Below are positions 5,561 through 44,769 of a stretch of 64,000 nt of DNA, piece after piece. Location: positions 322,744 to 386,743 of the forward strand of contig CP129479.1 of assembly GCA_030583865.1 (NCBI GenBank), in the 5' to 3' direction. A program made the translations under genes and the position numbers. The notes below the pieces were generated by a model. It was not told the origin of the DNA. It saw only the letters and a list, made by a program, of their open reading frames with translations, and did not search any database. The stretch's first letter is position 1. Every line of letters begins with the position of its first letter. Origin of the DNA: Thermodesulfobacteriota bacterium (GTDB lineage Bacteria > Desulfobacterota > GWC2-55-46).

Positions 5561-7012
5561 ATGGGCGTAGACACTATGACAATCGAGAGGACGAACAGCA
5601 ACAAGGTCCTCATAATCGACGACAACCTCACCAATAAGGCCGCGATCGAGGACGTCCTAGCCGAGAACGGGTTCGAGACCAAAGCCGCTGCTGACGGCAA
5701 GGAGGGGCTCCGGATACTCCATGAATGGGTGCCGAATGTAATACTCCTCGACCTGGTCATGCCAGGCATGGACGGAATGAGCGTCTGCCGCGAGATCAGG
5801 CGGATGAACATCTCCCCCCGGCCCTCCATAATCATAATCTCCGTTAAGGACGACAAGGAATCCATCGTAAACGCGCTTACGAGCGGGGCCGACGACTTCA
5901 TAGTTAAGCCCCTGAACGGGGCCGAGCTCGTGGCCAGGGTAAAGGCCCAGAAGAGGATATGCGAATTCTACAGTGAGCTCGAGGAGGACAAGAAAAACCT
6001 CGAGACGCTCCTCGACATCACGACGGCAATGGCCGCCACCCTCGACGCCTCGGAGATACTCGGCACCATAGTGGACAAGGTTGCCGCGACGACCAACGCC
6101 GTCAGGTGCTCGATTGTGCTGATATCAACGCACGAGAACGAGGGCTACGTGCTCGCCTCACACGAGGACCCGCAGGTAAAGGAGCTCAAGATCGACCTTT
6201 CCAAGTATCCCGAGATAAAGCAGGTCATGTCGAGCAAGATGCCGCTCGCGCTCGAGGATGTGCTCGGGAACCCCATAATGTCCCAGGTCCGCGACAATAT
6301 AAAAGACCTGGCGGGCATGAGCATCCTCATCCTCCCCATAGTATTCAACGACGAGGTCCTCGGCACCCTCTTCCTCAGGACCAGGAAGAAAAAGAACGGG
6401 TTCACGCAGAAGGAGATAGACTTCTGCAGGATAGTGGCCAACGCCTCCTTCCACGCGCTCAGGAACGCTCGCCTCTTCGAGAAGGTGGTGAAGGAGAAGG
6501 ACGTCCTGAAGGAGATGGCCGTAAGGGACCACCTCACTAACCTCTACAACCACAACTTCTTCTATTCGAGGCTCGAAGAGGAGTTCGAGAGGGCGGTTAG
6601 GTACGAAACGCCCCTTTCCCTCATAATGATCGACATCGACAATTTCAAGAACATAAACGACACCTACGGCCACAGGGTGGGCGACATGGTCTTGAAGGAA
6701 ATATCCGCCCTCATCAAGAAGGGCGTGAGGAAGACGGACATAGTGGCCCGCTACGGAGGGGAGGAGTTCTCGGTCATACTCCCGCACACGCTTTTGAAGG
6801 GCGCGATCGACGAGGCCGAGAGGCTCCGCGAGATGATAGAGGCGCACGCGTACGCCGGGCTCGTGAACCAGAGGATAACCGTAAGCATCGGGGTCGCCTC
6901 ATATCCGCAGAAGGGGGCAATGAACTCCGGCGACCTCGTGAACCACGCGGACGACGCGCTTTACAAGGCCAAGTGGAGCGGGAAGAACTGCGTTAAGGTG
7001 GCCGAGGTGTAA
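5561..7012 (+). CDS. Response regulator with GAF and diguanylate cyclase (GGDEF) domains
   Basis: Cytoplasmic signalling protein of about 483 aa. An N-terminal receiver domain carries the acidic pair near residue 20 and the phospho-acceptor Asp64 in ILLDLVMPGMDG. Then comes a short coiled linker, a GAF-type domain (about 155-300) and a C-terminal GGDEF domain. Its active site is GGEEF (about 399-403), a catalytically competent form, and five residues upstream is RKTD, an RxxD inhibitory site. It should make cyclic di-GMP when phosphorylated and be product-inhibited. No histidine kinase is adjacent. ATG 5561 is chosen; TTG 5513 and ATG 5576 are alternatives, and no ribosome site is strong. Confidence 0.88.
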   Translation: MGVDTMTIERTNSNKVLIIDDNLTNKAAIEDVLAENGFETKAAADGKEGLRILHEWVPNVILLDLVMPGMDGMSVCREIRRMNISPRPSIIIISVKDDKESIVNALTSGADDFIVKPLNGAELVARVKAQKRICEFYSELEEDKKNLETLLDITTAMAATLDASEILGTIVDKVAATTNAVRCSIVLISTHENEGYVLASHEDPQVKELKIDLSKYPEIKQVMSSKMPLALEDVLGNPIMSQVRDNIKDLAGMSILILPIVFNDEVLGTLFLRTRKKKNGFTQKEIDFCRIVANASFHALRNARLFEKVVKEKDVLKEMAVRDHLTNLYNHNFFYSRLEEEFERAVRYETPLSLIMIDIDNFKNINDTYGHRVGDMVLKEISALIKKGVRKTDIVARYGGEEFSVILPHTLLKGAIDEAERLREMIEAHAYAGLVNQRITVSIGVASYPQKGAMNSGDLVNHADDALYKAKWSGKNCVKVAEV

Positions 7013-7013
7013 A

Positions 7014-7155
7014 GGCAACCTCCAAAAATCGATCTTTTCCCCGGATTCTGTGTCAGGCCGGGAATAAAAATGCTCACATATTATCATATATGCTGCGCTT
7101 TTTATTCCCGGCCTTCCTTGACTGCGGGAAAAACCTCTAATTCTTAGAGATTGCC
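7014..7155. repeat. Family A palindromic repeat, copy A1
   Basis: 142-bp element bounded by GGCAACCTC at the left and its near-complement at the right, beginning 2 bp after the GGDEF gene stop. The inner hairpin arms GGCCGGGAATAAAAATG and CTTTTTATTCCCGGCC are fully complementary over the GC part. Similar copies occur near 21.7, 31.5, 34.2, 36.1, 37.8 and 55.9 kb, all in this orientation. Confidence 0.85.
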
Positions 7156-7175
7156 ATAAATTGTATTCGGGAAGG

Positions 7176-7204
7176 AAAGGCGGGCTTTGAGCCCGCCTTT
7201 TTTA
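7176..7204 (+). terminator. Intrinsic terminator between convergent genes
   Basis: A perfect 10-bp stem AAAGGCGGGC / GCCCGCCTTT with a 5-nt loop is followed by a T-rich run on the plus strand. It ends the GGDEF gene and may also serve thiC, whose stop is immediately beside it on the minus strand. Confidence 0.8.
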
Positions 7205-8470
7205 TTTCTGTATCTTTATCGCGCAGAGGCTCCCGCACATGGTGCAGACGCTCTCGTCCTCGGGCGGGCTCGTCTCCCTTATGGCCCTGGCCCTTTTAGG
7301 GTCTATCGAGAGCCTTATCTGCTCCTCCCAGTCGAGGGCCTTCCTTGCCCTGGCGAGCCTTATGTCGGCTTCCATAGCGCCCTTGGCCTTTTTCGATATG
7401 TCCCCGGCGTGCGCGGCTATGCGCGAAGCCATGACCCCCTCGCGGACGTCTTCGACCGTCGGCAGCCTCAGGTGCTCGCTCGGGGTAACATAGCAGAGGA
7501 AATCCGCCCCGGCAGCGGCGGCTATGGCCCCGCCGATAGCGGATGTTATGTGGTCGTATCCCGGCGCTATGTCGGTTACGAGCGGGCCGAGCACATAGAA
7601 GGGCGCGCCGTTACAGAGCCGCTTCTGGATGGTTATGTTCGCCTCTATCTGGTCGAGCGGCACGTGCCCCGGGCCTTCTATCATGACCTGCACGCCTTCG
7701 TCGAAGGCCATTTTCGCAAGCTCGCCGAGCGTTATGAGCTCATGTACCTGGCCCCTGTCCGTCGCGTCTGCAAGGCAGCCGGGGCGTAGGCCGTCGCCGA
7801 GGCTCAAGACCATGTCGTACTTTTTTGCGATCTTCAAGAGCCTGTCATAGCCCTCGTAAAGCGGGTTCTCTTTCTTGTTGAACTTCATCCACTCGGCCGT
7901 GAGGGCGCCGCCCCTGCTGACGATACCCATTATGCGCCCTTCTTGCCTTACCCTCTCAACCGAGCTCCGCGTAACGCCGCAGTGGACTGTCACGAAGTCC
8001 ACCCCGTCCTCGGCATGGGCCTCGATAGAATCGAACATCTCATCCGGCTCGAGCTCTACAAACGACTTGCCTTTCTTTCTGGCGTCATAGGCGGCCTGGT
8101 AGATGGGTACGGTGCCTATAGGCACCGTCGATTCGGACATAACTGCCTTCCTTATGGCGGATACGTCCCCGCCGGTCGAGAGGTCCATCACGGCATCGGC
8201 CCCGGCTTCGATGGCGGCCCTGAGCTTTGTAAGCTCTTCCTCTATGTCGGCCCTGTCCTGCGAAGAGCCTATGTTGGCGTTGACCTTGGTCCTGAGGCCC
8301 CGCCCGACTGCAAGGCCCTGTATGGAGCGGTGCAGCCTGTTTTTCGTGATTACGACAGTTCCGTCCTCAACGCCCTTTCTTATGAAGTCCGGGTCTACGC
8401 CTTCGGAGGATGCCGCGCTCCGCATCTCTTCGGTTGTAACGCCCTTGCGGGCGGCCTCAAGCTGTGTCAT
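7202..8470 (-). CDS. thiC: Phosphomethylpyrimidine synthase ThiC
   Basis: Radical SAM-type enzyme that rearranges aminoimidazole ribotide to hydroxymethylpyrimidine phosphate for thiamine. The 422-residue form lacks the long N-terminal domain of enterobacterial ThiC, as is usual in anaerobes. The iron-sulfur motif near the C-terminus is C409-x2-C412-x3-C416 (CTMCGSLC), the spacing seen in the short ThiC group. AAGGAG sits just upstream of the ATG. It is the last gene of the riboswitch-controlled operon; 51 bp with a small imperfect hairpin separate it from thiE. Confidence 0.95.
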   Translation of the reverse strand: MTQLEAARKGVTTEEMRSAASSEGVDPDFIRKGVEDGTVVITKNRLHRSIQGLAVGRGLRTKVNANIGSSQDRADIEEELTKLRAAIEAGADAVMDLSTGGDVSAIRKAVMSESTVPIGTVPIYQAAYDARKKGKSFVELEPDEMFDSIEAHAEDGVDFVTVHCGVTRSSVERVRQEGRIMGIVSRGGALTAEWMKFNKKENPLYEGYDRLLKIAKKYDMVLSLGDGLRPGCLADATDRGQVHELITLGELAKMAFDEGVQVMIEGPGHVPLDQIEANITIQKRLCNGAPFYVLGPLVTDIAPGYDHITSAIGGAIAAAAGADFLCYVTPSEHLRLPTVEDVREGVMASRIAAHAGDISKKAKGAMEADIRLARARKALDWEEQIRLSIDPKRARAIRETSPPEDESVCTMCGSLCAIKIQK

Positions 8471-8521
8471 TTCCGCTCCTTTTTTAGCAACCTCTGATTG
8501 TCTAACTTTCAGAGGCTGTCT

Positions 8522-9160
8522 TTATTCTGTCGTCTGTCTGCAGGCAAGGGCTTTGCCTATAAGCTCCCGTGTAGCCAGCTCCGTATCAGGGCTACCCATT
8601 ATGGCCGATATGACGGCAATGCGTGCGCCCGCGCCCACTGCTTCTCGTAGGTTCTCTTTATTCAGGCCTCCGAGCGCGTATACGGGTATGGAGAGCGCGG
8701 CGGCTGCTTCCTTCAGCTTACCTGTCCCGAGGGGTTCCCCGTACTCAGCCTTTGAGGGCGTGTGAAAGACCGGCCCGAAGGTCACGAAATCCGCGCCCCC
8801 GGCCTCAGCCTCCATCGCCTCTTCAAGGGAGTGGGTGGATACGCCTATGAGTTTGCCCGGCCCGAGGAGCTCCCTTGCACGTGATGCCGCGTAGCTCCTG
8901 GAAGTAAGGTGCACTCCGTCTGCGCCTGAGATCGCGGCTATGTCCGCCCGGTCGTTAATGAGAAGTTTCGCTCCGTATCCGGAAGCCAGTCCCCGGACCT
9001 CCCTTGCAAGGCCAAGTAGCTCCGTCGCCGGAAGGTCTTTTTCCCTGAGTTGCAGAAGCCGTATCCCGCCCGAGAGCGCCGCCTTCAAGGCGCCGAGGAA
9101 TGCGCCAGGCGGGGCGGCCTTCCTGTCCGTTATCAGATAAACCGGGGCAAGCTCTTTCAT
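8522..9160 (-). CDS. thiE: Thiamine phosphate synthase
   Basis: TIM-barrel enzyme joining the pyrimidine diphosphate and thiazole phosphate to give thiamine phosphate. The 212-aa sequence shows YLITDR at the start, QLREKDL, LLINDRADIA, GADGVHL and the phosphate-binding FGPVFHTPSK, all ThiE hallmarks. It lies between lgt (28 bp upstream) and thiC in the same direction. Confidence 0.93.
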   Translation of the reverse strand: MKELAPVYLITDRKAAPPGAFLGALKAALSGGIRLLQLREKDLPATELLGLAREVRGLASGYGAKLLINDRADIAAISGADGVHLTSRSYAASRARELLGPGKLIGVSTHSLEEAMEAEAGGADFVTFGPVFHTPSKAEYGEPLGTGKLKEAAAALSIPVYALGGLNKENLREAVGAGARIAVISAIMGSPDTELATRELIGKALACRQTTE

Positions 9161-9188
9161 TCCAACCTATACCGTTTTGGAGGGCCTT

Positions 9189-9974
9189 TTATTTTCTCTT
9201 TTTTCCCGGGGCCTCCCAGAGCCTCTTGTAGAATATTATGATTATCCCGGCCAGGGCCGCGGCCACGCTTACCGCCTGGGCCGCGCGGAGCGAGTCGAGC
9301 ATCAGGCTGTCGGCCCTGAAGTGCTCGACGAAAAACCTCCCCATCGAATAAAGGACGATATACGAAGCGAATATGAAGCCGTCCTTATGACCCTTCTTCC
9401 GGAGAAAAAACCAGAGTAACGAGAATATGCCCAGGTTTATGAATAGCTCATAGAGCATGACCGGGTGTAGCGGGATTCCCGGGAACTCCGAGCCCGCGGG
9501 AGAACCAGGCGGGAAGACGAGCCCCCAGGGAAGGTCCGTGGGCCTGCCGTGAGCGTCCCCGTTCATGAAGTTCCCAAACCTGCCGAAGGCCTGCCCGAGT
9601 ATTATGGCCGGGGCGACCGCGTCGGCCATGCGCCAGAAAGGGACGCTCTTTTTCCTGAGATAAATCCATGCCGCTCCCAGGCCGCCCAGCAGGCCCCCGT
9701 GTATCGCGAGCCCGCCGTGCCATACGGCGGGTATCTCAAGGGGGTTCGCGCCGTAGTAGCCCCAGTTGAACGCGACATAATAGAGCCGCGCCCCGAATAT
9801 GCCGCCCGCGACGGTCCAGATTATGAAGTTCATGATGTCGTCGCGGTTTAGGCCCAGGCCCTTTCGTTCCGCCTCCCGTATTATGAGGCGGCTCCCGACC
9901 AGTATCGCGATGACGTACATGAGCCCGTAGAACCGTATCTCCACCGGGCCGAACTCAAAGAGTACCGGGTGCAT
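9189..9974 (-). CDS. lgt: Prolipoprotein diacylglyceryl transferase
   Basis: Inner-membrane enzyme that transfers diacylglycerol from phosphatidylglycerol to the lipobox cysteine of prolipoproteins. The 261-aa protein has about seven hydrophobic segments and the Lgt signature GRFGNFMNGDAHG near residue 135, with the essential HGGL segment near residue 90. It is embedded between thiG and thiE with short gaps (8 and 28 bp), so it should be transcribed from the same riboswitch-controlled promoter although it has no role in thiamine synthesis. Confidence 0.94.
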   Translation of the reverse strand: MHPVLFEFGPVEIRFYGLMYVIAILVGSRLIIREAERKGLGLNRDDIMNFIIWTVAGGIFGARLYYVAFNWGYYGANPLEIPAVWHGGLAIHGGLLGGLGAAWIYLRKKSVPFWRMADAVAPAIILGQAFGRFGNFMNGDAHGRPTDLPWGLVFPPGSPAGSEFPGIPLHPVMLYELFINLGIFSLLWFFLRKKGHKDGFIFASYIVLYSMGRFFVEHFRADSLMLDSLRAAQAVSVAAALAGIIIIFYKRLWEAPGKKRK

Positions 9975-9982
9975 TACCTTCC

Positions 9983-10747
9983 CTACTCTATTACGCCCGA
10001 GAGCGGGCTCGATGCCGTGGCGTAGAGCTTCCTGGCTATCCTGCCGGAGCGGTAAGCGAGCCTTCCGGCCTCGACCGCCAGGTTCATGGCCCTTGCCATA
10101 GATACAGGGTCCTTTGCCCCGGCTATGCCGGTATTCATCAAGAGGCCGTCGCAGCCGAGCTCCATTGCTATCGCGGCGTCTGAGGCCGTGCCCACGCCAG
10201 CGTCAACTATGACGGGCACCTTAACGGTCTCGAGGATTATCCTAATATTGTACGGGTTCCGAATGCCTAAGCCGGAGCCTATGGGCGCGGCAAGGGGCAT
10301 GACAGCCGCGCAACCTATGTCTTCGAGCTTCCTTGCCATGATGGGGTCGTCGTTCGTGTATGGGAGCACAGTAAAGCCATCCTTTACGAGCACCCGTGCA
10401 GCCTCAAGTAGCGCCTCGTTATCGGGAAAAAGGGTCTTTTCATCGCCTATGACCTCAAGCTTCACGAGGTCTGTCTCAAGCGCTTCCCTCGCAAGCCGCG
10501 CCGTCCTTACGGCCTCGTCAGCCGTGTAGCAGGCGGCGGTATTGGGAAGGAGCGTATATTTCGGGTCTATGTGGTCGAGGAGAGAATCGCTCCCGCGCTC
10601 GAGGTTCACGCGCCGCACGGCCACGGTTATGACCTCCGCGCCAGAGGCCTCGAGCGCCTTTACCATGACCTCGTTCGAGGGGTATTTGCCCGTGCCGACC
10701 ATCAGGCGGGACTTGAATTCGTAATTGCCTATCTTCAATACGTCCAT
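9983..10747 (-). CDS. thiG: Thiazole synthase ThiG
   Basis: Catalyses formation of the thiazole phosphate ring from DXP, ThiS-thiocarboxylate and dehydroglycine. The 254-aa TIM barrel begins [19 protein letters not shown], and the Schiff-base lysine is Lys96 in LVKLEVIGD. The motif PYTNDDP and the GVGTASDAA phosphate loop are present. ATG at 10747 is chosen from family similarity; the frame is open further upstream but that part is unlike ThiG. It lies 50 bp downstream of thiS. Confidence 0.95.
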
Positions 10748-40300: not shown

Positions 40301-40376
40301 GGCGGTGTAGCTCAGTCGGCAGAGCAGGGGTCTCATAAGCCCCGCGTCGGTGGTTCGATTCCACCCACCGCCACCA
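40301..40376 (+). tRNA. tRNA-Met (CAT)
   Basis: 76-nt cloverleaf including encoded CCA. The acceptor GGCGGTG pairs with CACCGCC, the D arm holds GTAGCTCAGTCGG, the anticodon stem GGGGT/GCCCC encloses CTCATAA (anticodon CAT), and the T arm contains GGTTCGATT. Elongator methionine is most likely; a lysidine-modified tRNA-Ile for AUA has the same anticodon and cannot be fully excluded. Its 3' end is duplicated at about 41015-41050 and partly at 44376-44397, marking it as an integration target. Confidence 0.9.
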
Positions 40377-40470: not shown

Positions 40471-40806
40471 ATGCAAACATTGATACAGGTTTTTTGTAGT
40501 GGAAGGGGTTCTCTTCGCGATGCAATTGCCGCTGACAAGAGAATAGAGAAATACGATTTGGTAGTTTCAGAGAAAAAGAATCGAAATAGATCAAGCGGAT
40601 GGTCGAAAATCCACAGTCTTAATGGCTCTCATGGTGCCATTAACATCGAATGGGAAGCAAATACGAATATGTTGTTATGCAGAGTAATAACTAAGGGAGG
40701 AAATCAAAGCGATATAATTGCTGCCTTTATTAATTATCTGCTCTCAAAACATAAAAAACGTGTTCAGATGATAAATATTCGACCAATAGAGCATAAACAC
40801 ATATAA
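40471..40806 (+). CDS. Hypothetical protein, first gene of the tRNA-Met island
   Basis: AT-rich gene encoding 111 aa, with AAGGAG 8 nt before the ATG. The protein has no signal peptide or membrane segment and is moderately basic. It contains VVSEKKNRNRSSGWSKIHSL, then a region predicted as mixed strand/helix and a final helix (IAAFINYLLSKHKKRVQ). I do not recognise the family. It lies alone between tRNA-Met and a duplicated tRNA 3' end at 41015-41050, so it may be a small cargo unit of its own. Confidence 0.65.
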   Translation: MQTLIQVFCSGRGSLRDAIAADKRIEKYDLVVSEKKNRNRSSGWSKIHSLNGSHGAINIEWEANTNMLLCRVITKGGNQSDIIAAFINYLLSKHKKRVQMINIRPIEHKHI

Positions 40807-41241
40807 GCTATGTTGCATTTTTTGAAGCAGATATGTCATTTTTCAAGTAATTACGTTGTTATCATTTACGGCCGACGTCAGCTGTGCAAACTTTAAAGAA
40901 AATCACCAAACAGGCAATTTCTTCAAAAGACATAACCTCTGGATTGATAAGGCAAGACGGGAAACTCGGCCATAAGTTATAAAAAAATTATATTTTGCTG
41001 TTTAAGTCTCATGTGCCCCGTCGGTGATTCGATTCCACCCACCGTCACCAAAATACTACTTTCAAGAATTACTCAATTTTCGCTAAAGTCCTGTAGCCGG
41101 TTTAGAGCTTGAAAAACACTTTGTGGTTTGATTTACCTCTTCATCCGATTTCTAATGACTAAATGTAATCAGAAAGAATGCTCAATATGAATGAGGGATA
41201 AATAAATAAAAAATATTTTTAGAAAGATAAATATATAAAGA
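40807..41241 (+). other. AT-rich gap containing a duplicated tRNA-Met 3' end (att-like)
   Basis: No gene is seen. At 41015-41050 the sequence repeats the last 38 nt or so of tRNA-Met (GATTCGATTCCACCCACCG and CACCA) with two substitutions and a 2-nt deletion. This is what a tRNA-targeting integration leaves behind. The rest is AT-rich without clear promoter structure. Confidence 0.7.
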
Positions 41242-42732
41242 ATGCGTATACTTATAGATACAAATATTATTATTCATCTAGAAGACTCATCGAAAATACT
41301 TGATGATAGCCTGAGTGAACTTTTTAGACTTGCGTATGAAAATAGACATGAGATCGTAATTCATCCAGCATCATTTGATGATATTAAAAAAGATAGAAAT
41401 GAAAAAAGAAAAGAAATAAGCTTTTCAAGGGTTCGTAAATATCCTGTACTTAAAGGCCCACCAGAGCCTGGGGATCTCGAACTGAAAAGCTTAGGATTAT
41501 CTGCAATAACGAAAAATGACCATATTGATAATTTAATTCTTTATGCTGTATATAAAGATGCCGTAAATATTCTTGTAACCGAAGATCGTGAAATGCACAA
41601 AAAAGCAGCATTTTTGGGGTTGTCGGACCGCGTTCATTATATACAGCAAGCCGCTGAATTTCTAAGAAGACTTTATAGTAGCATACCTGTATCTCTTCCG
41701 AACATTGAGGAAGCTGCGCTTTATCAAATTGATTTGAGAAATTCATTCTTTGATTCATTGCGTGAAGACTACTCGAAATTTGATGAGTGGTACAAGATGG
41801 CATCACGAGAAGGCAGAAAAGCTTGGGTTCATAGAAATGAAAAAGGCGAACTAGGTGCAATTTGTATTTATAAAGAAGAGAAAGATCCAATAATCACGAC
41901 TGAAAATATCTCAATTCCTGGGAGAGTACTTAAGCTTTGTACTTTTAAAGTAGAGGAAAGAATGCGCGGGCGCAAGCTGGGAGAATTATTGTTAAAAGCG
42001 GCTTTTAGGTATGCTACTGATAATAAAATTGAGCATATTTATATTACCATGAAGCCAGGTAAGCAAAATTATTTGGAGGACATGTGTGAAGAATTTGGGT
42101 TCTATAGATTTGGAAAATATATTGATAATAGAGATGATGTATTTATTAAAGAACATTTTATTATGCCGCCTGATACCGAACTAACACCATTAGAATATAA
42201 CGTACACTATTTCCCACATTTTAAATCTGATAAGAATGTTAAGAAATATATTGTCCCGATTAGACCCAAGTTTCATGGTATATTATTCCCTGAAATTGAA
42301 CCTCAACCAAGCTTAATTGTAGGTTCAACGGCTGGTAATGCAATAAAACAAGCATACCTGTGCCATGCGCGTATTCATGGAATAAGCCCGGGAGACATTT
42401 TACTATTTTATAGATCACAGGATTTGCGAGCTATTACTAGTTTGGGAATTGTTGAGCTATCAACAGATCTTCAAGAGCTAGAAAAAATTATTCAAATAGT
42501 ATCAAAGAGAACTGTTTATACTTTTACAGATATAAAAAAAATGGCTGAAAAAAAGACAAAGGTTATTCTTTTTAGACTATCTGAGCACTTTTCTCTACCA
42601 ATATCTTATAAATGGTTAATTACTAATGAGGTCGTGCGCGGCAATATACAAACGATCAGAGGGATTTCACATGAGTCTTTTACAAAAATTATGCAAGAGT
42701 TCGCACCAAGTAGTTGCATTCATGCCCATTAA
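41242..42732 (+). CDS. PIN - GNAT acetyltransferase - PUA-like fusion protein
   Basis: Protein of 496 aa with three apparent domains. Residues 1-140 resemble a PIN ribonuclease: RILIDTNIII with Asp6, HIDNLILYA with Asp96 and VTEDREMHKKA with Asp115, in the expected order. Residues about 165-310 resemble a GNAT acetyltransferase, with the acetyl-CoA loop MRGRKLGELLLKAA (about 241-254) and a later MCEEFGFYRFGKY. Residues about 335-480 look PUA/EVE-like (IRPKFHGILFPE, ARIHGISPGDILLFY). This combination suggests RNA binding, cleavage and acetylation; tRNA is one possible target. The next gene overlaps by 11 bp. Base composition is far more AT-rich than the flanks, so it is probably acquired. No strong ribosome site is visible. 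Confidence 0.75.
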   Translation: MRILIDTNIIIHLEDSSKILDDSLSELFRLAYENRHEIVIHPASFDDIKKDRNEKRKEISFSRVRKYPVLKGPPEPGDLELKSLGLSAITKNDHIDNLILYAVYKDAVNILVTEDREMHKKAAFLGLSDRVHYIQQAAEFLRRLYSSIPVSLPNIEEAALYQIDLRNSFFDSLREDYSKFDEWYKMASREGRKAWVHRNEKGELGAICIYKEEKDPIITTENISIPGRVLKLCTFKVEERMRGRKLGELLLKAAFRYATDNKIEHIYITMKPGKQNYLEDMCEEFGFYRFGKYIDNRDDVFIKEHFIMPPDTELTPLEYNVHYFPHFKSDKNVKKYIVPIRPKFHGILFPEIEPQPSLIVGSTAGNAIKQAYLCHARIHGISPGDILLFYRSQDLRAITSLGIVELSTDLQELEKIIQIVSKRTVYTFTDIKKMAEKKTKVILFRLSEHFSLPISYKWLITNEVVRGNIQTIRGISHESFTKIMQEFAPSSCIHAH

Positions 42733-43114
42733 GCCAGTATATGCAATTAAATTGATGGAGGGGCTCAAAAAATATGAGTTTAGGAGGACTGCTATTAGGC
42801 AAGACATAACTCATATAATTATTTACGCGAGTTCTCCTGTTAAGAAAATTGTCGGCATAGCCGAGGTTGAATCAGTAAATGTTGCGAGTCCAACAGCGAT
42901 TTGGGAAAGCACCAAAAGCTCTGCGGGAATAACTCGTAAAGAATACAGAAAATATTTTCAAGGAACAAGGCAAGCAGTGGCAATAAAAATTAAAGATGTA
43001 ATTAGGTTAAAATGCGATATTGAACCTGATAAGGTCCGCGAGGGATTTAAAGTTCCTCAATCTTTTTTATATATAGATATGGATTTTGTAAAAAGAATGA
43101 TTGGCAAGGGATGA
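42722..43114 (+). CDS. ASCH (PUA-like) domain protein
   Basis: Protein of 130 aa beginning MPIKPVYAIKLMEGLKKYEFRRT, the hallmark start of ASCH domains (a Lys/Glu-rich K-x-YE-x-R strand that lines the nucleic-acid cleft). Later segments IIIYASSPVKKIVGIAEV and the AVAIKIKDVIRL strand complete the beta barrel. ASCH proteins bind RNA or modified nucleosides. Its start overlaps the PIN-GNAT gene by 11 bp, so the two are translated together and probably work as a pair. The frame extends upstream inside the previous gene, but that part is not family-like. Confidence 0.78.
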   Translation: MPIKPVYAIKLMEGLKKYEFRRTAIRQDITHIIIYASSPVKKIVGIAEVESVNVASPTAIWESTKSSAGITRKEYRKYFQGTRQAVAIKIKDVIRLKCDIEPDKVREGFKVPQSFLYIDMDFVKRMIGKG

Positions 43115-43230
43115 GAAACATAGTAGCTATAGCTATTAATCATTGGTCTATGAAAAGATTTGTGCGCTGATTAGCAATCCTTGAGTGGTGCCTTGTCTGT
43201 CTTTAATTATTTGTTTTGGGGAGCTTGATT

Positions 43231-44310
43231 ATGGGAAATGCTTTTCTTATAAAAAATGATGAAAACAAGGAGATTGAAATTGAGAAATTGCATGTAAATA
43301 TTTGGCTTTTTAATAAAAAAACTATTTATCAAGAAATCGGTCTCATGTTGAAAATGAAAAAAGAACTTTTAATTAATGAAAGTAGCTTAACGTTCTCATT
43401 ATCTGCTCCTTTTGCGATAAAAAATAATTATAAAGTGGACTTATACGAAAATTTGAAGAAAGATGAAATCCTGAGGCTTTTATTTAATGATGAAATAAAA
43501 GAAACGCAAAATATTGATCAATCAACAGAGCACGTAATTTGCAATAAAATTTTTAGATCAGGGGTCTGTTTCTTATTAATTAAACCAAAATTAAATATTT
43601 TAGAGAATAAAAAAGAGATCACGATAAAATTGGATTTAGAAAAAATCGATTCAGAAAAGAGTGAGCTTTTTTTTTCGGGAAAAGAAGTGCTGTATGTGTA
43701 TGTGAGATTCAGATTAGAAATTGATGTAGAGAAATCAGATAATATATATATTGCCGAAAAATTTTTGAATCAAAAAATCCTATTTGATCTTAGATTTAAT
43801 GAACTAAGGCGCTTTGATTATTATGCTTTAAATAAGTATAAAAAATTGCTACCAATTAAAACCATTCAAATTTTTTTAATCCAACCTGTGAGCTTTCGTG
43901 TGAGACTTGAAGATACAAAAGAAATTAAATATGTAAGATTTCTCGAAGAAAATGATATGTGGCGAGAATATATCGAAAAGCTGAAGAAGAGAAAAGAAAA
44001 ATTTGTAATTTATTATTGGAAGGAAAGCCCTCGTAATAGTGCGTCATTTGATGTTCTAATCCCTACCGAGACAGAAAAAGACGAATTGCAAAGGCAACTT
44101 AATCTTTCTTCCCTTTTTGCACTATTTGCATTTTTATTTTTTATAATTCCCGAAAACCAAAGAATTATTTCAGAGGTAGAGAAATTAATTCCAAGGATAG
44201 GGGTTTATTTTAAAGGGATGTCATTATTTTTCTTAGTACTTGTTTTTTTTGTTTTTCTTTTTGGTATTATATCTTCTTTTTTTAAAAAATTATACGCTGT
44301 CCTCAAGTAA
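43231..44310 (+). CDS. Hypothetical protein with two C-terminal membrane segments
   Basis: AT-rich gene encoding about 359 aa. Residues 1-285 are soluble, Lys/Glu/Ile-rich with many predicted strands and a few Cys. Two hydrophobic segments follow, about 290-308 (LSSLFALFAFLFFIIPE) and 325-350, leaving a short basic tail. It would be a C-tail-anchored membrane protein with a large soluble domain. I do not recognise the family. GGGGAG is 7 nt upstream of ATG 43231. It lies 116 bp after the ASCH gene, in the same direction and composition, so it may belong to the same island module. Confidence 0.65.
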   Translation: MGNAFLIKNDENKEIEIEKLHVNIWLFNKKTIYQEIGLMLKMKKELLINESSLTFSLSAPFAIKNNYKVDLYENLKKDEILRLLFNDEIKETQNIDQSTEHVICNKIFRSGVCFLLIKPKLNILENKKEITIKLDLEKIDSEKSELFFSGKEVLYVYVRFRLEIDVEKSDNIYIAEKFLNQKILFDLRFNELRRFDYYALNKYKKLLPIKTIQIFLIQPVSFRVRLEDTKEIKYVRFLEENDMWREYIEKLKKRKEKFVIYYWKESPRNSASFDVLIPTETEKDELQRQLNLSSLFALFAFLFFIIPENQRIISEVEKLIPRIGVYFKGMSLFFLVLVFFVFLFGIISSFFKKLYAVLK

Positions 44311-44375
44311 ATGGTCTGTTCACCATGCCTGAGTCAGGGAAATTAGAAAGATGAATAAGTATTTATTTGCCTCTA

Positions 44376-44397
44376 TGTCGGTTCGATTCCACCTGCG
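44376..44397 (+). other. tRNA-Met T-arm fragment (att-like) at island right end
   Basis: TGTCGGTTCGATTCCACCTG resembles the tRNA-Met T arm (GTCGGTGGTTCGATTCCACC) with a 3-nt deletion. It lies 66 bp after the last island gene, where composition returns to GC-rich, and so marks a likely right border. It is short and imperfect, hence the moderate confidence. Confidence 0.5.
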
Positions 44398-44603
44398 GGA
44401 TTCAAGATTGGTAAGCAAAAAACGATACCGGCCCGTTCCTCTCCTTGCAAATCCCTTTCCCCCACTCCCGAACAAAGACGATCATCATTCTCCCCTCGAA
44501 AAAGCCAAAACATGACAAAAAGCATGTTTCAGGCCCGTTTGTAGGCGTATATTCCCAGCATAGCTTGAGGAACCCTTTAGGCCTCATAATTCAATTTAAG
44601 GAA

Positions 44604-44734
44604 GGTCTGATTGATTCCGTTTTCTGTCATTCTGAGAGAGCGAAGCGAACGAAGAGTCTCGTAACTTGCTGATTTTCCAACTACGAGATTCTTCGCTACG
44701 CTCAGAATGACAACCATTTGCGAATCAATCAGAT
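44604..44734. repeat. Inverted-repeat element before the cyclophilin gene
   Basis: Nested arms: outer TCTGATTGATTCCG (44604-44617) against CGAATCAATCAGA (about 44719-44731), inner GTCATTCTGAG (from 44626) against CTCAGAATGAC (to 44711), each followed by GCGAAG and AAGAGTCTCGTA-like blocks. This is a compact MITE-like unit. The rest of the gap from 44311 to 44769 holds no gene. Confidence 0.65.
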
Positions 44735-44769
44735 ATTCCTTAATATTTTTTACTCTATCGGAGGAGGGC

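What the first reader, a model, noticed from the sequence alone, without database searches (positions are those of the whole stretch)
41242..44310. Candidate new system: PIN-GNAT-PUA fusion plus ASCH protein plus C-tail-anchored protein in a tRNA-Met island
One 496-aa protein joins an apparent PIN nuclease (Asp6, Asp96, Asp115), a GNAT acetyltransferase (GRKLGE loop) and a PUA-like domain. The next gene overlaps it by 11 bp and encodes a second PUA-like protein (ASCH), and a membrane-anchored hypothetical protein follows. All three are AT-rich in a GC-rich genome and sit in an island at a tRNA gene. PIN, GNAT and PUA/ASCH domains each act on RNA in known toxins, modification enzymes or stress systems. 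Having all of them in one operon suggests an RNA-directed conflict or toxin-antitoxin-like system, possibly acting on tRNA. That function is inference.
Basis: partly seen in the sequence, partly recalled or inferred. Interest (0 to 1): 0.78.

Follow-up and report, generated by a model that had tools for sequence, protein, structure and literature searches.

The report
Predicted RNA-targeting defence module plus membrane partner
The window carries a mobile gene pair already predicted from comparative genomics to be a toxin-antitoxin or phage-defence unit (a nuclease–acetyltransferase–RNA-reader fusion with an ASCH partner), plus a third, previously unassigned membrane-anchored gene whose intact relatives were always found beside the same kind of module.

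Summary
The genes are real and foreign (28–37% G+C in a 57% background). ORF1 is a PIN–GNAT–EVE/PUA-like fusion and ORF2 an ASCH protein. The pair is not new. It matches PADLOC candidate PDC-M11A/B end to end and is the "(PIN)-GNAT-EVE + ASCH" predicted toxin-antitoxin system of Bell et al. 2020; a PIN-less phage version is annotated GevT toxin/GevA antitoxin. ASCH is next to ORF1 homologues in 83 of 83 testable loci, once fused to them. In a related genome (82% identity) only these two genes are shared. The new part is ORF3. It belongs to an undescribed family, here called C: a beta-rich domain plus a C-terminal membrane anchor, without a convincing match in Pfam, NCBIfam, PADLOC or PHROGs. 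All 10 intact C genes found by searches that did not use ORF1 lie within about 3 kb of a GNAT+ASCH module, and C occurs scattered over the ORF1 tree. So the three-gene grouping is supported, but as a new variant of a known predicted system. The tRNA-Met gene is a general insertion hotspot (other cargo in relatives), so it says nothing about tRNA-Met as target. RNA or aminoacyl-tRNA targeting and the roles of ASCH and C remain inference.

The parts
40301..40376 (+). tRNA-Met(CAT), the intact left end of the integration hotspot; host gene, not part of the module
   Evidence: ARAGORN, Rfam; same tRNA borders different inserts in three congeners
41016..41050 (+). copy of the tRNA-Met 3' end (35 nt, 91%), probable att remnant left of the module
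   Evidence: direct repeat; pattern scan, chance expectation 0.56 per window at up to 2 mismatches
41242..42732 (+). ORF1, family A: PIN-GNAT-EVE/PUA-like protein, 496 aa (PADLOC PDC-M11A), predicted toxin/effector
   Evidence: PADLOC E 3e-144; Pfam; AlphaFold2 pLDDT 89.7, pTM 0.80; fold matches
41242..41676 (+). PIN nuclease domain, residues about 1-145; D6, T7, N8, D96, D115 invariant, D93 nearly so
41698..42162 (+). GNAT acetyltransferase domain, residues 153-307; invariant Y177, F180, W183, K231, G243, G247, E248, G286
42235..42708 (+). EVE/PUA-like domain, residues 332-489
   Evidence: Z 14.2 to ZmASCH; Pfam EVE in 19 of 48 relatives
42671..43114 (+). ORF2, family B: ASCH protein (PADLOC PDC-M11B), predicted antitoxin or specificity partner; longest ORF from 42626
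43231..44310 (+). ORF3, family C: beta-rich domain with C-terminal membrane anchor, accessory third component (longest ORF from TTG 43216)
   Evidence: hhalign E 1.3e-6 and phmmer 5e-10 to neighbours of A; C linkage
44194..44304 (+). strongest C-terminal hydrophobic segment of ORF3, predicted transmembrane; a weaker one starts near residue 293
   Evidence: hydropathy, helical C-terminus in the model
44370..44404 (+). decayed copy of the tRNA-Met 3' end with exact 14-mer GGTTCGATTCCACC at 44380-44393, right end of the island

Best explanation
The locus is a horizontally acquired (PIN)-GNAT-EVE/ASCH module (PDC-M11) extended by a membrane-anchored accessory protein. Shown: a PIN-GNAT-EVE fusion with intact conserved PIN and GNAT positions, obligate linkage to an ASCH partner, mobility, and a third gene family whose intact members were found only with such modules. 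Inferred: ORF1 is an RNA-directed toxin or effector. The EVE domain would recognise a modified base in RNA, the GNAT would acetylate a nearby alpha-amino group (aminoacyl-tRNA is the best guess) and the PIN would cut the bound RNA, so that translation stops. The ASCH partner would hold it in check and set its trigger or specificity, with release on phage infection or other mobile-element attack. ORF3 would tether the complex to the inner membrane, or act there as sensor or second effector. About 0.85 for membership of the predicted TA/defence family, 0.6 that ORF3 is a functional component, 0.4 for RNA/aminoacyl-tRNA as target.
For: Full-length PADLOC PDC-M11A (E 3e-144) and PDC-M11B (E 1e-44) matches. 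Published family with the same architecture and ASCH partner, reported near RM and CRISPR systems (PMC7641849). ASCH adjacent in 81 of 88 loci directly, one more masked by ORF calling and one natural A-B fusion (L056, 638 aa); the other five end at contig edges. Type I RM genes within about 8 kb: HsdM in 15, HsdS in 11, HsdR in 9 loci; AAA_17 ATPase in 33. PIN catalytic aspartates and GNAT motif residues invariant. PIN-less relative annotated GevT toxin with GevA antitoxin in phage PhiR47_2. In G019 the shared block runs from the ORF1 start codon to the end of ORF2, at another place. Family C: seven plasmid records found with six different C seeds, all carrying A; three intact C genes in 397 Hyphomicrobiales genomes, all next to GNAT+ASCH. 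The C label needs 8 changes on the A tree, all forced by supported branches.
Against: No toxicity, antitoxin action or phage protection is shown for PIN-GNAT-EVE in anything I could read; PMC7641849 says that none of the modules had been characterised, and I found no paper behind the GevT/GevA labels. C is absent from most A/B loci (about 6 of 80 genome and viral loci have it), including the closest relative G019, so it is not essential. The AAA_17 gene of many relatives is missing here. The ORF3 model is poor (pLDDT 58) and has no fold match. The conserved Lys in the GNAT loop is atypical and could mean altered chemistry.
Confidence: 0.6

Rival explanations
1. Modification-dependent restriction helper: GNAT-EVE acts on a modified DNA base and the ASCH (sometimes HTH-ASCH) reads modified DNA, so the module is an accessory of type I restriction rather than an RNA toxin.
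For: Proposed by Iyer et al. 2013 as cited in PMC7641849, which also reports an ASCH-HsdS fusion; Hsd genes near many copies.
Against: The PIN domain, normally an RNase, is intact; most loci and this one have no RM genes nearby; PIN-less forms occur in prophages without RM.
Confidence: 0.2
2. Counter-toxin: PIN-GNAT-EVE destroys acetylated aminoacyl-tRNAs made by phage-encoded GNAT-EVE toxins, protecting the cell rather than killing it.
For: Hypothesis of PMC7641849; PIN-less GNAT-EVE copies sit in phages.
Against: PIN-GNAT-EVE itself occurs in phage psiM100 and viral contigs and has its own linked ASCH (83 of 83 testable loci), as expected of a toxin needing an antidote.
Confidence: 0.12
3. 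ORF3 is an unrelated passenger of the tRNA-Met hotspot; only ORF1-ORF2 form a module.
For: 116 bp gap to ORF2, lower G+C (27.7%), absent from G019.
Against: ORF3 is homologous to C genes that flank GNAT/ASCH modules: 10 of 10 intact genes found blind to A, plus six loci where C lies directly beside A or B.
Confidence: 0.08

Closest known systems
(PIN)-GNAT-EVE + ASCH predicted toxin-antitoxin operons (Bell et al. 2020, PMC7641849; earlier noted by Iyer et al. 2013)
   Same: Identical three-domain fusion, adjacent ASCH gene, mobile and defence-island setting.
   Different: Here with a membrane-anchored third gene of family C and without the AAA_17 ATPase; that paper's main text does not use the word transmembrane and names no membrane protein for these operons.
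PADLOC phage-defence candidate PDC-M11 (M11A, M11B)
   Same: Both proteins match end to end.
   Different: No PADLOC model matches ORF3 or four other C proteins.
GevT/GevA of Escherichia phage PhiR47_2 and lambdoid relatives (annotation in PV340567)
   Same: GNAT-EVE toxin and overlapping ASCH antitoxin, 26.5% identity over the GNAT-EVE part.
   Different: No PIN domain, no family C gene beside it.
GNAT toxins of the TacT/AtaT type
   Same: GNAT fold (TacT3 among Foldseek hits), predicted toxin role.
   Different: Fused to PIN and EVE; partner is ASCH, not the DNA-binding antitoxin usual for that type (own knowledge); Lys in the acetyl-CoA loop.
psiM100 ORFD-ORF5 (inserted fragment IFa)
   Same: ORFD is a PIN-GNAT-EVE (32.7%), ORF5 the ASCH.
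   Different: Archaeal virus; no family C.

Membership tests
(PIN)-GNAT-EVE/ASCH system (PDC-M11) | Fusion of PIN, GNAT and EVE/PUA-like domains in this order | tested here: met
(PIN)-GNAT-EVE/ASCH system (PDC-M11) | Adjacent ASCH-domain gene | tested here: met
   83 of 83 testable relatives likewise
(PIN)-GNAT-EVE/ASCH system (PDC-M11) | AAA_17 ATPase gene (frequent, optional, so not a condition of membership) | tested here: not met
   ORF list around the locus and neighbour clustering show none in the window; present in 33 relatives
(PIN)-GNAT-EVE/ASCH system (PDC-M11) | Mobile or defence-island location | tested here: met
   tRNA hotspot with TA, RM and CRISPR V-B cargo in congeners; low G+C
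Type II toxin-antitoxin system | Toxin harmful alone, neutralised by the partner protein | not testable with these tools
   needs expression assays
Anti-phage defence system | Protection in phage challenge | not testable with these tools
   needs plaque assays
GNAT tRNA-acetylating toxins (TacT/AtaT type) | GNAT fold with acetyl-CoA loop Q/RxxGxG/A | tested here: inconclusive
   fold met; loop has Lys at the second Gly position in 80 of 88 and Arg in 8
Family C (this report) | H-x-N-x-W, YxRxR and RxN-x2-R motifs, C-terminal hydrophobic segment, GNAT/ASCH neighbour | tested here: met

The most novel reading that the evidence does not exclude
The predicted PIN-GNAT-EVE/ASCH system has a third, membrane-anchored component (family C), recruited repeatedly and, so far, dedicated to GNAT/ASCH modules with or without PIN or EVE. 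That would link an RNA-modifying and RNA-cutting toxin to the inner membrane, as in defence systems that sense or act at the envelope.
Probability: 0.55. Interest if true: 0.6.

Novelty: new variant of a known kind. Interest (0 to 1): 0.45.

Why it matters
PIN-GNAT-EVE/ASCH modules are spread across bacteria and archaea but have no established mechanism. A dedicated membrane partner gives a testable handle on localisation and trigger, and adds an unassigned family to defence-gene catalogues. If the RNA-target reading is right, it would be a toxin that couples reading, acetylating and cutting of RNA in one chain.

Tried and rejected
Direct tblastn of ORF3 in plasmids gave nothing; ORF3 was linked to its family mainly through the profile of neighbours and the copy in L116. 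No C in phage records. Fold search of the ORF3 model: no match at E 0.001 or better, and the model is too poor to read. PIN-domain profile against PDB sequences: no PIN match, one chance-level hit; the VIA list is filled by GNAT and ASCH chains, so the PIN fold was not tested there. Literature searches for PDC-M11 (none), GevT and GevA (no relevant paper), PhiR47 (only the SNIPE paper, where such phages are test phages and GevT is not discussed). A role tied to tRNA-Met because of the location was rejected: the site takes unrelated cargo. The 111-aa ORF at 40471 has no convincing family or plasmid match and lies outside the second repeat, so it was left out. A 43-residue C match in one Flavobacteriaceae genome (E 7.7e-4, inside a 570-aa frame) was treated as chance. 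The Desulfosporosinus C match is an 85-aa remnant without such neighbours and was not counted as intact. Promoter and terminator scans were no better than shuffled sequence.

Full report
What is there. The three ORFs exist as described. ORF1 (41242-42732) is a 496-aa protein. An AlphaFold2 model built on 48 aligned relatives has mean pLDDT 89.7 and pTM 0.80. Residues 153-307 superpose on N-acetyltransferases, closest to protein N-terminal acetyltransferases (Z about 15), and residues 332-489 on the Z. mobilis ASCH protein (Z about 14, rmsd 2.3-2.8 A). The PIN domain rests on Pfam PIN_3 (E 7.5e-4 here, best 3.7e-6 among relatives, 20 of 48 members) and on invariant D6, T7, N8, D96 and D115 with nearly invariant D93. 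The C-terminal domain is best called EVE-like, since 19 of 48 relatives match Pfam EVE. ORF2 is an ASCH protein with the conserved G46-x-K48-x-x-E51-x-R53 motif. ORF3 has a beta-rich predicted body and a hydrophobic C-terminus.

The pair is known. Both proteins match PADLOC candidate PDC-M11 over their whole length. Bell et al. 2020 (PMC7641849) describe the same fusion, state that almost all such operons encode an ASCH protein and often an AAA_17 ATPase, report association with type I RM and CRISPR-Cas, and predict a toxin-antitoxin role. They also say that none of these modules had been characterised. The PIN-less form in phage PhiR47_2 is annotated GevT toxin and GevA antitoxin; I found no paper behind these labels.

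Linkage of ORF1 and ORF2. Among 88 loci (window, phage and plasmid records, 79 genome contigs, 4 viral contigs) an ASCH gene is adjacent in 81, usually overlapping the 3' end of ORF1's homologue (69 of 77 downstream cases). Of the other seven, L049 has the ASCH hidden in an over-extended ORF, L056 has it fused in frame (638 aa), and five end at a contig edge just after A or C. So 83 of 83 testable loci keep the partner. The reverse need not hold: the psiM100 record notes that ORF5 (the ASCH) has a counterpart in psiM2, whereas the PIN-GNAT-EVE gene ORFD lies largely in the psiM100-specific inserted fragment. A partner that can exist alone, and a first gene that was never seen alone, is what a toxin-antitoxin pair would show; this is suggestive only.

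The mobile unit. In G019, of the same family as the host, a pair 82% identical to ORF1 lies at an unrelated place. The DNA match runs from the ORF1 start codon to the end of ORF2 (window 41241-43110, 80% identity) and stops; ORF3 is absent and the flanks differ. Both copies have about 35% G+C, against about 56-57% in their surroundings.

The hotspot. In three congeners the same tRNA-Met slot, between the same flanking genes, holds other cargo: a Gp49-like/HI1420-like toxin-antitoxin pair in G004; a thermolysin-type peptidase in G001; and in G005 a 21-kb element with integrase, primase, type I RM, a YhcG-type nuclease, a Cas4-Cas1 fusion and a 1489-aa C2c1 (type V-B) effector, bounded by perfect 45-bp repeats of the tRNA end. 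In the window, the module lies between a 91% and a decayed copy of the tRNA 3' end. This supports a defence/TA island and removes any reason to link the module to tRNA-Met.

ORF3. Clustering of neighbours of A gave a family of about 310-350 aa directly beside A or B in L071, L092, L101, L109 and L111. ORF3 aligns to its profile over 240 columns (hhalign E 1.3e-6) and by phmmer to two halves of a frame-broken copy in L116 (5e-10, 5e-9). Six diverse C proteins used as tblastn queries against 72,556 plasmids find, together, seven records. Every one carries A or its PIN-less form within about 3 kb, although only 33 plasmid records carry A at all. In 397 Hyphomicrobiales genomes searched with the C profile alone, three intact C genes were found. 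Two have GNAT-EVE plus ASCH nearby; the third (L143) has ASCH, an AAA-type ATPase and a stand-alone GNAT-like protein that appears by eye to share the Y-x2-F-x2-W motif of A. One decayed remnant in Desulfosporosinus has no such neighbours. C is rare: 1 of 297 genomes of the host's phylum (the window's own), 1 certain of 397 and 1 of 395 in two Bacteroidota samples (the known one in each). On a 93-protein tree of A the C label needs 8 changes, all forced by supported branches, so C was gained or lost repeatedly; part of the rows were chosen because they carry C, so the proportion of C on that tree is not a frequency. Its place relative to A varies: upstream, between A and B, downstream, or on the other strand. 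Invariant residues include H-x-N-x-W, YxRxR and a W-x2-Y pair. No library gives it a convincing match. Bell et al. name no membrane protein for these operons; I could not read Iyer et al. 2013.

Mechanism. Steps shown by sequence: domain content, intact PIN and GNAT positions, linkage, mobility. Steps inferred: RNA as substrate (PIN, EVE), alpha-amino acetylation, possibly of aminoacyl-tRNA (similarity of fold to N-terminal acetyltransferases and to TacT-type toxins), ASCH as restraint, C as membrane tether, sensor or second effector. The family-wide Lys/Arg in the acetyl-CoA loop is unusual and should be tested before the acetylation step is taken for granted.

Verdict. A well-formed member of a known predicted system, with an apparently unreported third component. 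Interest is moderate: the pair is known, the membrane partner is new but its role is unknown.

Noticed in passing
L034 + L035 (G005 C20:264800-287700): 21-kb integrated element at the same tRNA-Met: tyrosine integrase, D5-like primase/helicase, type I RM, YhcG/DUF1016 nuclease, Cas4-Cas1 fusion and a 1489-aa C2c1-like (type V-B) effector, with perfect 45-bp tRNA repeats.
   Followed up: partly
L033 (G004 C44): The same tRNA-Met slot holds only a Gp49-like/HI1420-antidote-like toxin-antitoxin pair, a near-minimal island.
   Followed up: partly
L032 (G001 C34:47000-52500): The same slot holds an 816-aa thermolysin-type (M4) peptidase with thrombospondin type 3 repeats.
   Followed up: partly
L143 3372-11442: Variant module: family C, stand-alone GNAT-like protein, AAA-type ATPase and ASCH, next to a Fic-like protein and an HsdR-like helicase; neither PIN nor EVE domain detected.
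   Followed up: partly
L003 1554-4846 (psiM100 6786-10078): The inserted fragment IFa of archaeal virus psiM100 carries most of a PIN-GNAT-EVE gene, while its ASCH (ORF5) is noted as shared with psiM2.
   Followed up: partly
window 40471-40806: 111-aa AT-rich ORF between the tRNA and the second repeat, no convincing family or plasmid match.
   Followed up: partly
L139 8543-8800 (minus strand): 85-aa N-terminal remnant of family C alone in a Desulfosporosinus genome that has PIN-GNAT-EVE on another contig.
   Followed up: yes
window 44596-44743: Inverted repeat with 22-nt arms (91% complementary, 104 nt apart) just right of the island.
   Followed up: no
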